Shown here: positions 696 through 7,982 of the stretch, in pieces
Numbering within the stretch: the first letter of the stretch is position 1
Layout: every line of letters starts with the position of its first letter
DNA from: Armatimonadota bacterium
Lineage (GTDB): Bacteria; Armatimonadota; Fimbriimonadia; Fimbriimonadales; Fimbriimonadaceae
Direction of reading: 5' to 3'
NCBI GenBank assembly: GCA_020438215.1
Contig: JAGQUX010000024.1
Coordinates: forward strand, 1-38,371
DNA length: 38,371 nucleotides
Notes under the pieces: generated by a model
Databases searched by the model: none
Seen by the model: only the letters and a program-made list of their open reading frames with translations
Told to the model about the DNA's origin: nothing
Position numbers and translations under genes: made by a program

Positions 696-1409
696 TTACT
701 TATCTTGATGTGTGATCCACTTGATCGCGCCAAGTAGGTGCTTCTGGAAATCGGGCTCGTCATAGGCTTCGGAGGTGTGCCCGCCACCAGTATAGAAAGC
801 TCGCCCGTCGAACTTATCGTGGCACCAAGCGGTTGGGTGAGCATCGCCCATTTTGTGGCCCTCGTAGCTATTCGTGTCGAGTTCACAAAGGATGTGGACA
901 TCCTTTGCCGGCTGCGCTTTGTAGTCGTACCATTCATCGGTGCGAACCCAGCGTTCGGGAAGGTGTTTGGTGGAGATGTGTGTGCGATCTACTACCTTGA
1001 CCGTGGCTTCTTGAACTCGTGGGTGGCTCATAAACCAACCGCCGACGAGCTCGCCGTAAAACGGCCAATCGTATTCTGTGTCAGCGGCAGCGTGAATGCC
1101 AAGGAAACCACCCCCATTGCGGACAAACCATTCCAGAGCTTGTTCTTGTGCCGGTTCAAAGATGTCGCCAGTCGTATTGAGGAAGACAACAATTTTGTAC
1201 CGCTTCAAGAGGTCTTTCGTGATGAGGCTGGCATCCTCGGTATGGCGAACAAAGAACCCGTTTGCCTCTGCCATCTTGGAAACGACTTCGGTGCCGTGTT
1301 CAATTGATCCGTGGCGATAGCCAGCGGTTTTGGTGAAGATCAGCATCCCATTGGTGCGAAGTTGGCCCTGAGCCATAACGGCTCCGGCAGCAAGCGAGGC
1401 AAGCAACAT
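696..1409 (-). CDS. ThuA-domain secreted protein
   Basis: This 237-residue protein has a short hydrophobic N-terminus (MLLASLAAGAVMAQ) that looks like an export signal. The rest matches the ThuA-like fold, a class I glutamine-amidotransferase-like domain named after trehalose-utilisation proteins. Visible hallmarks are the GYRHGSI segment near the N-terminus, the GGGFLGIHAAAD nucleophile-elbow-like loop, a WYDY segment, and GRAFYTGGGH near the end. Many ThuA-domain proteins in Planctomycetes- and Armatimonadota-like genomes act on sugars or stand next to oxidoreductases, but no reaction can be assigned here. It starts 12 bases after the stop of the thioredoxin-like gene, so the two probably form one minus-strand operon. 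The terminator at 664-694 closes it. Confidence 0.88.
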   Translation of the reverse strand: MLLASLAAGAVMAQGQLRTNGMLIFTKTAGYRHGSIEHGTEVVSKMAEANGFFVRHTEDASLITKDLLKRYKIVVFLNTTGDIFEPAQEQALEWFVRNGGGFLGIHAAADTEYDWPFYGELVGGWFMSHPRVQEATVKVVDRTHISTKHLPERWVRTDEWYDYKAQPAKDVHILCELDTNSYEGHKMGDAHPTAWCHDKFDGRAFYTGGGHTSEAYDEPDFQKHLLGAIKWITHQDK

Positions 1410-1421
1410 GCGGTCAGTTTA

Positions 1422-2675
1422 TCAGGGAGTGCGGCACCAGCGCAAACCGTAACCCCAATACCACTGCTGAGGAAGCATCCGGTCATCTGCATCGGTAAGA
1501 GGATTGAGACTAAAACTGCTGGCTACGCGCTGAACTCGATCTCCTTTGTGGAGGTTAGATACGAGAACACCAACATCGTGAGTGCCGAGCATGACGGCAT
1601 CAAAGTTGGTCATGGAATCGATGGCAGAATCGTAAACCGCTCGGCCAAGCAAGTCGCCTTCGTAGCTGGCCTTATTCCACTGAGTGTTGGCTTTGGCAAT
1701 GTAGTGCGCCCGGATTTCCAGGTGAACCTGGCTGCCTTCGATCCTAGTGATGCGGCTGGTCATATCGCCGGTTTTGATATGGCTGACATCCCATGCTCCT
1801 TGCGCCTTCATCATGTGGCTCATCAGGATGTATCGCTCCATTGCTGGCCCACTGACCTTGATGGAATTGCCTACCTTGAGTTCTCGGGGGACATAGGCGC
1901 GGAATTCGCTGGGTTTGAACCAAAGCCGGTCAATCCCGAAGAACTTGGGGTGGCGTTCATCGAAGGTTTCCATGCCGGGATAGGCGTAGCCACGCTTGAC
2001 AACCCGAAGATCGAGTGTGCGCTCTGGCTTGAAAAACTTATCTTCTTCCCAGGTGATGCGATCGGCATCGGTAAGAGGCTGAGAAAGAAGTCGCTCGGAC
2101 TTCGGCATCGCCTTGTACTTTGCCAGAGCTTGTTTCATCCGTTCCAGAGCGGCAACCGGGTCGGGGTCGGGCCAGCCGGTGTTGGCAGTAGTCAGCCATC
2201 GCCCAGATGGAGTCACAACAAAAATGCCCTGATGAATGCCGTTCGGGTCGTTTCTAAAAACGTTGGCGAGCAGTTGAAATTCGCGCTTGCTTTTCTGATC
2301 GGAGTTGTTGTAGTCCACATCATCTGCCGCGACAGTGATGAAGTTTTCCTTGACGAACTGTGTGATATCTGGTCGAGTCCAGACAAACTGCCTGGTCTTG
2401 GCACCGTTTTGTCAGCACGCGCCTCGGGGGTCGCCGAAGTACAGCCAGAGGATGACCGGCTTATCGAGTTCCTGCCCGTACTTCAAGCCCTCAAAGACGG
2501 TGGTCTTCCAATCGAGGGATTGAAAACGCAGATCGTCGGTGGTGAGTGATGCGTGCTTCTTCACCGTCTCGAAGGTCTCCCAAGAGAGTTCTTTGGGCGC
2601 AACATTCTTGATGAGCTGGGCTTCGGTTGGGGAAGCCTGCCCAATGGTTGCGAAATTGAGAAGAAGGCTGAGCAT
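1422..2675 (-). CDS. thioredoxin-like secreted protein with in-frame UGA (candidate selenoprotein)
   Basis: Two open stretches in the same frame, 2675-2415 and 2411-1422, are separated by a single TGA at 2412-2414. Reading through gives 417 residues. The start at 2675 gives a short signal peptide (MLSLLLNFATIGQA). A thioredoxin-like strand (KPVILWLYFG) follows, and then a loop with Cys87 immediately before the UGA at codon 88. After the UGA the protein continues naturally (QNGAKTRQFVW, then FITVAADD) with the rest of a thioredoxin-like domain (QGIFVVTPSGRWL) and a C-terminal domain of unknown function up to residue 417. No frameshift is needed. A hairpin begins at the G of the UGA. A Cys-Sec redox pair would fit the position of a thioredoxin active site. 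The alternatives are a nonsense mutation or a base-calling error. No selenocysteine machinery is visible in the window. A standard annotation would split this gene at the UGA. Confidence 0.7.
2382..2414 (-). promoter_or_regulatory. UGA codon with SECIS-like hairpin
   Basis: On the minus strand the UGA (2414-2412) opens directly into a hairpin. Arm GACAAA (2413-2408) pairs with UUUGUC (2387-2382). Above it lie a bulged A, a C-G pair, a bulged GG, and a UGCC/GGCA stem closed by the loop AAGACCA. Bacterial SECIS elements sit just 3' of the Sec codon inside the coding sequence, with bulges below a small loop that usually has G near its start. Here the loop G is third and the loop starts only about 13 bases past the UGA, so the match is suggestive but not clean. 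Confidence 0.4.
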
Positions 2676-2773: not shown

Positions 2774-3931
2774 ATGTCCGCAAATGATTCGCACAAGCCC
2801 GACACGATTCTCCAGCATTTGGGGGAAGACACCCATTGGGCGGGGGCGGTCACACCGCCGATCTTCCAGACATCGTTGTTTGTGCACGAATCGATTGACC
2901 AGTATCTGAGTGCTCACGAAGAAGGGAGATACACCTATTCGCGGTGTGGAAACCCGAATCTGGATTTGGCGCAGGTGAAGCTAGCCGCCCTGGAAAAAGC
3001 GGAGGAAGGGCAGCTCTATAACTCGGGGATGAGCGCGATCACTGCCGCAATCATGAGCGAGACAAAAGCCGGGGCACATGTCGTTTGTGTGGACACTTGC
3101 TATGGCCCGACGCGGATCTTCCTCGAAACGTATTTGCCAAAGTTTGGAGTGACAACGACATTCGTTTCTGGTCACGATCCCCAAGAGATTTTTGATGCTT
3201 GCAAGCCAGAAACAACACTGATCTACCTCGAATCCCCAAGTAGTTTGATCTTCCAGTTCCAAGATTTGAGGGCGATCTCCGCATTTGCGAAAGAGCGGGG
3301 AATTGCAACGTGTATTGATAACAGCTACGCCTCCCCCATCTATCAGCAGCCGATCACTATGGGGATTGATCATGTCGTCCATAGCGGTACCAAGTACATC
3401 GCCGGGCATAGCGACGTTGTTTGCGGGTTGCACTGTACGTCGGCAGAGAAAATGGCAGTCGTCCGCAAGAATGAGATGGAACTGATCGGCGCAGCATTGC
3501 CGCCATTTCCGTCGTGGCTTGTTTTGCGGGGATTGCGAACCCTCAAGCTCCGGATGGAGCGCGCTCAAGAAACTGGGAATACGATGTGTCAGTTTCTCAA
3601 GGGTCGTTCGGAGGTTACGGAGGTGTTCCATGCTTCTGATCAAGATCATCCGCAGCATGATCTGTTCAAATCGCAGATGTCGGGTTCCGGTTCGTTGATC
3701 ACGTTTGCCCCTGCGTTCCAAGATGAAATCAAAGTGCGGCAGTTTGTCGAGAGCCTAGAAATCTATCAAATGGGTGTCAGCTGGGGTGGCTACGAAAGCT
3801 TGGCAATGCCGCTCAAAGTCAAGCCGATGCACTGGAAAGAAGAGCGGCTTTTGGTTCGCCTTTATTGTGGGCTCGAAGACGTTGGTGACCTCATGGACGA
3901 CCTCGATCAGGCGTTCAAAAAGATCGGTTAG
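2774..3931 (+). CDS. Cys/Met-metabolism PLP-dependent enzyme (cystathionine gamma-synthase/lyase family)
   Basis: This 385-residue protein has the standard length for the cystathionine gamma-synthase, beta-lyase and gamma-lyase family of PLP enzymes. Family motifs appear in order: YTYSRCGNPN near the N-terminus (substrate/PLP region); LYNSGMSAI, the phosphate-binding SGM loop; the IDNSYASPI strand with the PLP-nitrogen aspartate; and HSGTKYIAGHSDVVCG with the Schiff-base lysine. The C-terminal SWGGYESLAMP matches the substrate-carboxylate region. These enzymes act in the cytoplasm on cystathionine, homocysteine or activated homoserine. The sequence alone does not decide between synthase and lyase. 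The gene stands alone, and its stop overlaps the stop of a small minus-strand gene by two bases (3929-3930). There is no clear Shine-Dalgarno site; a weak TAGCGT lies 7 bases before the ATG. Confidence 0.93.
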   Translation: MSANDSHKPDTILQHLGEDTHWAGAVTPPIFQTSLFVHESIDQYLSAHEEGRYTYSRCGNPNLDLAQVKLAALEKAEEGQLYNSGMSAITAAIMSETKAGAHVVCVDTCYGPTRIFLETYLPKFGVTTTFVSGHDPQEIFDACKPETTLIYLESPSSLIFQFQDLRAISAFAKERGIATCIDNSYASPIYQQPITMGIDHVVHSGTKYIAGHSDVVCGLHCTSAEKMAVVRKNEMELIGAALPPFPSWLVLRGLRTLKLRMERAQETGNTMCQFLKGRSEVTEVFHASDQDHPQHDLFKSQMSGSGSLITFAPAFQDEIKVRQFVESLEIYQMGVSWGGYESLAMPLKVKPMHWKEERLLVRLYCGLEDVGDLMDDLDQAFKKIG

Positions 3932-4832: not shown

Positions 4833-7800
4833 ATGAGTTTGTTGACAACACTAATTCTCGTTACTCATGCGCCCACGGGAGGTCAGCTTGCGCCGCCAGT
4901 TGCAAAAGAACTGGTAGGGGCACACTCGCTGGCTCTCAGCCCCGATGGGTCGCAACTTGCTTTCTCCTATCGAGGTGACATCTGGGTTGCCCCATCCGCT
5001 GGTGGGCGTGCAATCCCGGTTGCTAGCCATCTGGAAATGGACGACTATCCGACTTGGTCACCTGATGGTAAGTGGATTGCATTTTCTTCTGATCGCTATG
5101 GAAGTTGGGACATCTTTGCTGTCCCTGCTGAGGGTGGTTCTCCAATCCGCGTAACAGAAATGAGCGGCACGGAAATCCCGATGTCGTTCTCGCCCGATGG
5201 CAAGAAGATCGCGATGCGCGGTGTCTTTGATAAGGTCACCAACGGCGTCTACACAATCGACATCAACACCGGGAAGTTCGAGGAAATCTCGATTGATAAC
5301 CAGCGAATCTCCGAAGTGATTTACAGCCCGGACGGCTCGAAGTTTGCCTACACTCGCAAGGCGGCGTTCCCATATGCGCGACCCAGATATCAAGGTTCAG
5401 GTGCGGCCCAGATTTATGAAACTGCGCCAGGGCAGGGAACAGGGAAGCTGATCCGCAATACTGGTCTGCAACACCTGTGGTTGAATTACGCTCCAGATAG
5501 CAACAGCATCTATTGCGTGAGTGCAACCGAAGTCACCCCGAGTTCTCACAACATCAACGAAAAGCCGGGCGTCTTTGCAGATAATGTCAACCGCACTCCT
5601 AACGTGTATTCAGTAGATGGACGCGGAAAGGCAACCCGCCTGACTGACTACGTTGGTTCTGGCCCGCGCTTCTTGACCGTTGCTTCCAAAGCCGGAAACA
5701 TTGCTTTCGAGCGCGATGGTTCTCTTTACACCATGTCGCCAGGTGGTCAACCGAAGAAAATCACGATCACAGGCTTTGTGGATGATAAGACCACCCAAGA
5801 AGAACGGCTCGTTCTGACCAATGGCGTCGAATGGTTCTCTCTCTCTCCTGATGGCAAGACGTTTGTCTTCCAAGTCAATCGTGAGCTTTGGAGCGTTCCG
5901 GTCGAGCAAGGTAAAGGCCCGAACAAGAGCGATGCGACACAGATCACTGATTACGCCGGTTCCGATGAGAATCCGCTCTACGCGCCGGATGGCAAGAGCG
6001 TGTTCTTTGTCTCTGATCGGGAAGGGGCGCGGTCGCTGTATCGCTACACCTTCGCGGATAAGAAAGCCACCAAAGTTGTCGATTCCAAGTACGACATCAT
6101 GGGCATGACAATCTCGCCGGATAAGAAGAGCCTGAACTACTGGCTCGGCGGGCCGGATGGTGGTCTCTTCACGATTCCGGTGGAAGGTGGCACGCCAAAG
6201 CTCGTTCTCAAAACTGGCTTCCAGCAAGCGTATTCTTGGTCACCGGATGGTCGATACCTGGCATATGCACGGCAATTGCTGAACTCCGGTTTCAATCCGT
6301 GGGAAAACAAGACGAACATCTATGTTCTCGACACCCAAACCGGGAAAGAGCAAAATGTGACGCGTCTGTCGGCGTATCACACCTGGCCGGAATGGTCGAA
6401 AGACGGTAAGTATCTGTACTTTATCAGCGACCGAGATGGCGGTAACTCGCTTTACGCACTGCCGCTTCAGAAAGAAGATGCCACTGGCATTGCTCTTGAA
6501 ATCAAGTACGAAAAACCGAAGGATGCGGTGAAATGCGACTTTGATTTCAACAAGCCGGAAGATCGTATTCGACGACTGTATCGCGGTTCGGTGGACGCAT
6601 TGCCATTGATGGATCCGGAAAAAGGTGACATCTACTTCCTTGGCGGTGGTCAAGTTTGGCGCGTTGGTTACGATGGAGAAGGTGCACGCCAGCTCACCAA
6701 TGGTGGTGCAGTCGGTGGTTACGAATTTTCGGGTGATTACAACAACATCGCCTACATCCAAGATGGGCGACTCAAAATCACCGATATTCGCAAGCCGAAT
6801 CTCCCCACTCAAACGGTTGACTTCCGCGCGGTCTGGATGCACGATCTGAAGGCCGAGCGCAAAGCGGCATTCGATGAGTTCTGGAGAATTTACAATCTGA
6901 GCTTCTACGATCCGTATATGCACCGCCGTGACTGGGCTTCGATCAAGAAGCGCTACGAACCGCTTCTTGATGGTGTCGGTCACCGCCGAGAAATGGCTGG
7001 TGTTCTCAACTTGATGGTGGGCGAACTCGAGTCGTCGCACTCTGAAGTTGGGCCGGCTCCGGGCGGTACATTTGCGACTCCTGATGCTCACCCAGGCTTC
7101 CTAGTGGATTACTCCTGGCAAGGTCGTGGTATCAAGATTTCGGAAGTGCCCGACGGAACTCCCGGATCGTTTGAGAAGACCAAGCTCAAAGCGGGCGAAT
7201 ACGTTCTGCAGATCAATGGAGTGGATGTGACCAACGGGTTGAGCATGTACAAGGCTCTGAGCGGGCAAACCGGTCGCGAAGTGGAGTTCACAGTTAATAG
7301 CTCACCCACTACTGACGGCGCACGCAAAGTCAAATATGTTGCTCCAAGTTCAGGTCAAGTTGGTGGAATCATCAACAACAACCGCGAAAAGTGGCGACGT
7401 GAATATGTCGAGAAGAAATCTGGCGGAAAGCTGACTTATGTTCACATCGCGGGTATGGGCGGTGGCAATATGCGCCAGTTCAACTTCGAGGCCTGGCAGT
7501 ATGTCCAAGGCAAAGAGGGCGTGATCATCGACGTTCGTGAAAACGGTGGTGGCAACATTTCGGATGCTTTGATCGACATGCTGGAGCGCTCTCCGCAGAT
7601 GCGTTATCTGCCGCGAGATGATGAAGAAGTTCTCGGCCCCGGTACCAGCTGGAACAAACCGACTGTCGTGATGCACGCAGAAAGCAGCTTCTCGAATGCG
7701 GAAATGTTCCCAGCGGCAATGAAGGCTCGCGGACTCGCGACCCTGGTCGGGATGCCGACTCCGGGTTATGTCATCTACACGTATGGTGGGCGCCTGGTGG

Positions 7801-7982
7801 ATGGAACAAGCATTCGCCTCCCGAACACGGGCGTCTATCGCATGGATGGCACCCCCACCGAGAACATGGGTCAAGAGCCCGATTTCAAGGTGGATATCAC
7901 TCCGGAGCAGTACTTCGGCATGATGGAAGAACCGCAACTCGACAAGGCAATTGAAGTCTTGATGAAGAAGATCAAGAAATAA
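4833..7982 (+). CDS. Tricorn-like protease (beta-propellers + PDZ + S41-type core)
   Basis: This 1049-residue protein has the full layout of Tricorn-type proteases. WD40/TolB-like beta-propeller repeats (many SPDGK, APDGK and SDRDG motifs) fill about residues 30-600. A C1 helical domain follows, then a PDZ domain (about 755-840) and a C-terminal S41-type catalytic domain. The tetrad expected from Thermoplasma Tricorn can be placed: Ser735-His736 in ELESSHSEVG, the nucleophile Ser954 in SSFSNAEMFP, and Glu1010 in TPTENMGQEPDF. These enzymes degrade oligopeptides. The short hydrophobic N-terminus (MSLLTTLILVTHA) may be an export signal, as in bacterial homologues, but it is weak. There is no Shine-Dalgarno site; TATACA lies 13 bases before the ATG. 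A strong terminator follows. Confidence 0.93.
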   Translation: MSLLTTLILVTHAPTGGQLAPPVAKELVGAHSLALSPDGSQLAFSYRGDIWVAPSAGGRAIPVASHLEMDDYPTWSPDGKWIAFSSDRYGSWDIFAVPAEGGSPIRVTEMSGTEIPMSFSPDGKKIAMRGVFDKVTNGVYTIDINTGKFEEISIDNQRISEVIYSPDGSKFAYTRKAAFPYARPRYQGSGAAQIYETAPGQGTGKLIRNTGLQHLWLNYAPDSNSIYCVSATEVTPSSHNINEKPGVFADNVNRTPNVYSVDGRGKATRLTDYVGSGPRFLTVASKAGNIAFERDGSLYTMSPGGQPKKITITGFVDDKTTQEERLVLTNGVEWFSLSPDGKTFVFQVNRELWSVPVEQGKGPNKSDATQITDYAGSDENPLYAPDGKSVFFVSDREGARSLYRYTFADKKATKVVDSKYDIMGMTISPDKKSLNYWLGGPDGGLFTIPVEGGTPKLVLKTGFQQAYSWSPDGRYLAYARQLLNSGFNPWENKTNIYVLDTQTGKEQNVTRLSAYHTWPEWSKDGKYLYFISDRDGGNSLYALPLQKEDATGIALEIKYEKPKDAVKCDFDFNKPEDRIRRLYRGSVDALPLMDPEKGDIYFLGGGQVWRVGYDGEGARQLTNGGAVGGYEFSGDYNNIAYIQDGRLKITDIRKPNLPTQTVDFRAVWMHDLKAERKAAFDEFWRIYNLSFYDPYMHRRDWASIKKRYEPLLDGVGHRREMAGVLNLMVGELESSHSEVGPAPGGTFATPDAHPGFLVDYSWQGRGIKISEVPDGTPGSFEKTKLKAGEYVLQINGVDVTNGLSMYKALSGQTGREVEFTVNSSPTTDGARKVKYVAPSSGQVGGIINNNREKWRREYVEKKSGGKLTYVHIAGMGGGNMRQFNFEAWQYVQGKEGVIIDVRENGGGNISDALIDMLERSPQMRYLPRDDEEVLGPGTSWNKPTVVMHAESSFSNAEMFPAAMKARGLATLVGMPTPGYVIYTYGGRLVDGTSIRLPNTGVYRMDGTPTENMGQEPDFKVDITPEQYFGMMEEPQLDKAIEVLMKKIKK

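What the first reader, a model, noticed from the sequence alone, without database searches (positions are those of the whole stretch)
2382..2675. Candidate selenoprotein: in-frame UGA after Cys in a thioredoxin-like active site
The minus-strand gene 1422-2675 has one TGA at 2412-2414. Both flanks continue in the same frame and look like parts of one thioredoxin-like protein: strand KPVILWLYFG, loop, Cys87, UGA at 88, then QNGAKTRQFVW. The UGA lies where a redox residue is expected, giving a Cys-Sec pair. A bulged hairpin starts right at the UGA (arms 2413-2408 and 2387-2382, inner UGCC/GGCA stem, 7-base loop). Automatic annotation would split or shorten the gene. The hairpin's loop spacing is not ideal, and no selABCD genes are in the window.
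Basis: partly seen in the sequence, partly recalled or inferred. Interest (0 to 1): 0.82.

Follow-up and report, generated by a model that had tools for sequence, protein, structure and literature searches.

The report
New obligate selenocysteine thioredoxin-like family
The gene's "stop" codon is almost certainly read as selenocysteine, and it belongs to a large, apparently undescribed family of exported bacterial selenoproteins, spread over several phyla, in which this position is selenocysteine in nearly every member and was never found as ordinary cysteine.

Summary
The in-frame TGA at 2412-2414 is almost certainly selenocysteine (Sec88). The same genome (Fimbriimonadaceae, Armatimonadota) carries selA, selB, selD (itself with an in-frame TGA) and tRNA-Sec with anticodon UCA. 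Homologues in Armatimonadota, Planctomycetota, Verrucomicrobiota, Chloroflexota and other phyla keep the TGA. A scan of about 85,000 genomes that left the codon open as TGN gave 116 loci, all TGA. Genomes with TGA homologues have SelB: 34/38 relatives (the other four are incomplete) and 25/26 in other phyla. Purifying selection is equal on both sides of the TGA. AlphaFold (pLDDT 90) gives a thioredoxin-like domain plus a C-terminal beta-rich domain. Sec aligns with the nucleophilic Cys of CxxC; the resolving Cys is Gly (UxxG) and the cis-Pro is Gly. The Cys before Sec is not invariant, so a Cys-Sec pair is not the core. Non-Sec relatives have Ser, Asp or an insertion there, not Cys. No Pfam or NCBIfam model fits above threshold, and a 2026 inventory of 119 prokaryotic selenoprotein families lacks the motif.

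The parts
1422..2675 (-). selenoprotein gene, 417 aa with Sec88; final stop is the TGA at 1422-1424
   Evidence: homologues; dN/dS
2412..2414 (-). Sec codon TGA (residue 88), aligned with the nucleophilic Cys of CxxC in 3f9u (GYGCVNC)
2415..2417 (-). Cys87 (TGC) directly before Sec: typical of the FGDPRGxCUQNG subtype; most relatives have Cys at -2 instead (GCTUNNG) and 26/147 have neither
2379..2395 (-). SECIS hairpin: CCAGGCA (2395-2389), GUU loop (2388-2386), UGUCUGG (2385-2379); 23 nt between UGA and loop
   Evidence: fits the bSECIS model in PMC13188914
2616..2675 (-). N-terminal hydrophobic, signal-peptide-like segment (residues 1-20); export inferred from it and from clearer signal peptides in homologues
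   Evidence: sequence
2103..2531 (-). thioredoxin-like domain, about residues 49-191
1425..2018 (-). C-terminal beta-rich domain, about residues 220-417; no clear match to a known structure

Best explanation
The gene encodes an exported selenoprotein. SelB with Sec-tRNA(UCA), guided by the hairpin 2395-2379, decodes UGA 2412-2414 as Sec88, giving a 417-residue protein instead of an 87-residue fragment. It is one member of a widespread, apparently undescribed family (NGHPxGCTUNNG main form; FGDPRGxCUQNG subtype here) with a thioredoxin-like domain followed by a beta-rich domain. Sec replaces the nucleophilic Cys of CxxC, the resolving Cys is Gly (UxxG) and the cis-Pro is replaced by an invariant Gln-Gly. 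Inferred, not shown: it is an extracytoplasmic redox enzyme working through one selenol (peroxidase- or reductase-like, with an external thiol or an optional neighbouring Cys as resolving group), and its chemistry cannot be done by Cys. Supported by computation here: Sec decoding, family, fold, SECIS. Inferred: export and catalysis.
For: selA/selB/selC/selD in the genome, tRNA-Sec anticodon TCA, selD with its own in-frame TGA in the canonical place. TGA at the same codon in homologues; 116/116 TGA in an open TGN scan. In Planctomycetota 89 of 94 site-covering strong matches carry TGA; Chloroflexota 10 of 10 full-length. SelB co-occurrence: 34/38, Fisher p 4e-7; 25/26 in other phyla. SECIS: 84/84 cells paired in the subtype against 59% after synonymous shuffles, z 9.2; C-G to G-C and A-U to C-G compensations. 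dN/dS equal on both sides. Trx fold: profile hit 3f9u E 1.3e-5 with Sec on the first Cys of CVNC and Gly on the second; AlphaFold pLDDT 90, VIA Z 13.4 to 3f9u and 11-12 to AGR2/AGR3.
Against: No protein-level evidence. The hairpin position of the window subtype is only weakly shared by the larger NNG branch (z 3.0), whose SECIS may differ. Four of 38 relatives with TGA lack a SelB hit, all incomplete genomes. The redox role rests on fold and residue identity only.
Confidence: 0.96

Rival explanations
1. TGA is a true stop (or a nonsense mutation or sequencing error) and the gene is a pseudogene or two ORFs.
For: Standard ORF calling ends at the TGA and lists 1422-2318 and 2412-2783 as separate ORFs.
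Against: Same TGA in homologues from several phyla, equal purifying selection downstream, conserved hairpin with compensatory changes.
Confidence: 0.02
2. TGA is decoded as Trp or another residue (altered code or general read-through).
For: None found.
Against: TGA ends 12 of 28 long non-overlapping ORFs in the window; the open TGN scan gave no TGG; presence follows SelB; tRNA-Sec present.
Confidence: 0.01
3. A selenoprotein, but of a known family (for example Trx7/PDZ, VPGUxxT thioredoxin-like, or a prokaryotic relative of SELENON) or one already described under another name.
For: Weak sub-threshold NCBIfam hits to VPGUxxT (E 0.0044) and Trx7/PDZ (E 0.098), each in one of 35 members. The SELENON Sec context resembles it from memory only (untested lead).
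Against: No NCBIfam or Pfam model above cut-off; different Sec motif; not in the 119-family table; no PDZ domain seen in the family.
Confidence: 0.12

Closest known systems
Thioredoxin_7 / DsbD-gamma / AGR-ERp18 / DsbH thioredoxin-like domains (3f9u, AGR2, AGR3, ERp18)
   Same: Fold of residues 49-191; Sec at the position of the nucleophilic Cys after the first central strand
   Different: UxxG instead of CxxC; Gly instead of cis-Pro; extra C-terminal beta domain; Pfam PF13899 only below its gathering score
Trx7/PDZ domain (seleno)protein NF041199
   Same: Thioredoxin_7-type domain, selenoprotein
   Different: CxxU motif and PDZ domain; sub-threshold hit in one of 35 members
VPGUxxT thioredoxin-like (seleno)proteins NF041382/NF041383
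   Same: Trx-like selenoproteins
   Different: Different motif and architecture; sub-threshold hits only
Bacterial SECIS (bSECIS consensus model)
   Same: Stem of 7 bp, GUU apical loop with flanking A-U pair, 23 nt from UGA, MFE -12.4 kcal/mol
   Different: None seen in the window subtype; the NNG branch shares this hairpin position only in part

Membership tests
Bacterial selenoproteins | Sec machinery (selA, selB, selC, selD) in the genome | tested here: met
Bacterial selenoproteins | In-frame UGA conserved at one codon in homologues | tested here: met
Bacterial selenoproteins | SECIS hairpin downstream of UGA fitting the bSECIS model (3-9 nt loop, G in first two positions, 16-37 nt spacing, MFE <= -7.5) | tested here: met
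   model from PMC13188914
Bacterial selenoproteins | Cys-containing homologues at the Sec position (usual, not required for membership) | tested here: not met
   0 TGY in 116 loci; nine inspected full-length non-Sec homologues have S, D or an insertion
Bacterial selenoproteins | Sec detected in the protein | not testable with these tools
   needs mass spectrometry or 75Se labelling
Thioredoxin-like fold | Fold with catalytic residue at the start of helix 2 | tested here: met
CxxC thiol-disulfide oxidoreductases (thioredoxin, DsbD-gamma) | CxxC (or UxxC) and cis-Pro | tested here: not met
   U+3 is Gly in 143/147; cis-Pro position is invariant Gly150
Pfam Thioredoxin_7 (PF13899) | Score over the gathering cut-off | tested here: not met
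   15.5 against 27 bits
NCBIfam Trx7/PDZ or VPGUxxT selenoproteins | Score over the curated cut-off | tested here: not met
SELENON | Sequence or fold homology to the SELENON thioredoxin-like domain | not tested
   no SELENON sequence or structure was at hand; resemblance is from memory

The most novel reading that the evidence does not exclude
A large, old family of exported selenoproteins in which Sec is obligatory: in no lineage was it found exchanged for Cys, and when Sec is lost the whole active site is lost with it. This would be a chemistry that Cys cannot do, against the rule that nearly all selenoenzymes have abundant Cys homologues.
Probability: 0.6. Interest if true: 0.85.

Novelty: new variant of a known kind. 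Interest (0 to 1): 0.74.

Why it matters
Prokaryotic selenoprotein searches commonly rely on Sec/Cys pairs among homologues; a family without Cys forms would slip through, and its genes would be annotated as truncated or split. The family adds a recurrent selenoprotein to Planctomycetota, Armatimonadota and Chloroflexota, often with several copies per genome, and may help explain why these lineages keep the Sec machinery. It also makes a standing question testable: why Sec rather than Cys.

Tried and rejected
(2) The same SECIS position in the whole NNG branch: only weak support (z 3.0), so no single family-wide SECIS is claimed. (3) Gene neighbourhood as a clue to function: no neighbour recurs across the family. 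The ThuA-like gene downstream in the window recurs on the same strand only in L105; the divergent Cys/Met-metabolism PLP gene recurs only in close relatives. (4) Viral contigs: no match. (5) Fold of the C-terminal domain: Foldseek best E 0.059 and VIA best Z 7.2, within the range of chance arrangements, so no family named; a known fold is not excluded. (6) Literature: no paper found describing the family; the library lacks most subscription journals. (7) Careful tree not finished; the quick tree forces at least three changes between Sec and non-Sec, and the one-clade test did not finish, so a single loss is not formally rejected.

Full report
Observation. Minus-strand 1422-2675 reads as 417 codons plus stop with one internal TGA at 2412-2414, codon 88, after Cys87. 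The window itself has no tRNA and no Rfam match, so the question had to be taken to the whole genome and to relatives.

Machinery. The window's genome (2.64 Mb, 99.4% complete) has selA (447 bits), selB (362 bits), tRNA-Sec (71.9 bits; anticodon TCA) and selD (351 bits), the last with an in-frame TGA in the canonical SCAGUASKLG loop. The genome therefore has what is needed to decode UGA as Sec and at least one other likely Sec gene. Contigs shared with named records place its family in Fimbriimonadaceae, Armatimonadota.

Conservation of the codon. Read through, the protein has homologues in 42 of 151 relatives, nearly all with one TGA inside. Direct translation shows the TGA at the same place: FGDPRGxCUQNG in the window's subtype and NGHPxGCTUNNG in the main form. 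Titles name Planctomycetota, Verrucomicrobiota, Chloroflexota, Poribacteria, Neomarinimicrobiota, Latescibacterota, Hydrogenedentota, Armatimonadota and single MAGs of others. Profile searches gave 101 of 294 Planctomycetota genomes (of the 94 strongest matches, E under 1e-60, that cover the site, 89 have TGA, counted by hand from the listing), 9 of 251 Chloroflexota and 1 of 241 Verrucomicrobiota, the query genome itself. Full-length homologues without TGA have Ser, Asp or a short insertion there: L074, L079, L080, L083 and L225-L229; none has Cys. On a quick tree the non-Sec forms need at least three separate changes.

Co-occurrence. Of 38 relatives with a TGA homologue 34 have SelB over the cut-off, against 49 of 113 without (Fisher p 4e-7, which ignores relatedness); the four exceptions are 68-88% complete. 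Of 26 genomes of other phyla with a TGA homologue, 25 have SelB.

Selection. In pairs where dS could be estimated, dN/dS is 0.04-0.24 upstream and 0.03-0.20 downstream of the TGA, so the downstream part is translated in frame. TGA also ends 12 of 28 long ORFs of the window, which argues against a general recoding.

SECIS. Folding and alignment show another: 2395-2389 with 2385-2379 and a GUU loop, 23 nt after the UGA. In the 14 members of the subtype all 84 cells of its six outer pairs are paired, against 59% after synonymous shuffling (z 9.2). In 18 homologues pairing is 100%, with C-G to G-C in three and A-U to C-G in one; seven of these 18 are NNG members picked because they fold this way, so the test that counts is the one on the 14. 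Some of the compensatory changes alter the protein (Trp to Cys, Trp to Gly), as expected if the RNA is what is kept. It meets all four bSECIS criteria of PMC13188914. The main NNG branch shares the position only in part (z 3.0).

Fold and active site. A family profile finds 3f9u, a DsbD-gamma-like domain, at E 1.3e-5, with Sec on the first Cys of CVNC, Gly on the second, and Gln-Gly on the Gln-Pro that carries the cis-Pro. AlphaFold gives pLDDT 90, pTM 0.87; residues 49-191 match 3f9u (Z 13.4, 2.6 A over 121 residues) and AGR3/AGR2 (Z 11-12). The C-terminal part (pLDDT 86 alone) is beta-rich with no convincing match. Invariant residues include Trp56, Pro73, Trp77, Gly81, Pro83, Gly85, Sec88, Asn90, Gly91, Gln149, Gly150. 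Cys stands at -2 or -1 in most but in neither of 26 of 147 sites, so the Sec works without a fixed partner Cys. N-termini look like signal peptides or lipoprotein signals in many members, hence the inference of an extracytoplasmic enzyme.

Known or new. No NCBIfam (June 2026) or Pfam model fits above cut-off. [quoted passage not shown] The family therefore looks undescribed, with the caveat that subscription literature was not searchable.

Limits. All evidence is computational. The genome scan required fixed flanks, so Cys forms with changed flanks would be seen only by the profile searches, which sampled part of three phyla plus the relatives. Catalytic function, export and the reason for obligate Sec are inferences.

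Noticed in passing
window 696-1409 (-): ThuA-like gene (PF06283, E 3e-73) starting 12 nt after the selenoprotein stop; not a conserved neighbour across the family.
   Followed up: partly
window 2774-3931 (+): Cys/Met-metabolism PLP enzyme, divergent from the selenoprotein gene; the same divergent neighbour in close relatives (L021/L114, L096, L022, L023), possibly a sulfur amino acid link.
   Followed up: partly
L063 (G000:C41:16553-18358): Second family member in the same genome, of the GCTUNNG type, also with one in-frame TGA.
   Followed up: partly
L124, L189 (JADZEW records): Contigs titled Methanoregulaceae archaeon SJ84 have the lengths of G018 contigs, a genome of the window's own bacterial family: the record title looks wrong.
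   Followed up: no
L227 (G283:C37:8700-12200): Tandem pair: one Sec copy (AVVUNNG) next to a copy without Sec that has an insertion at the site.
   Followed up: no
G174:C26:32512-33775: Chloroflexota copy split between two frames after the TGA-bearing part; frameshift or pseudogene.
   Followed up: no
window 4833-7982 (+): Tricorn-protease-like protein with PD40 repeats and peptidase S41.
   Followed up: no
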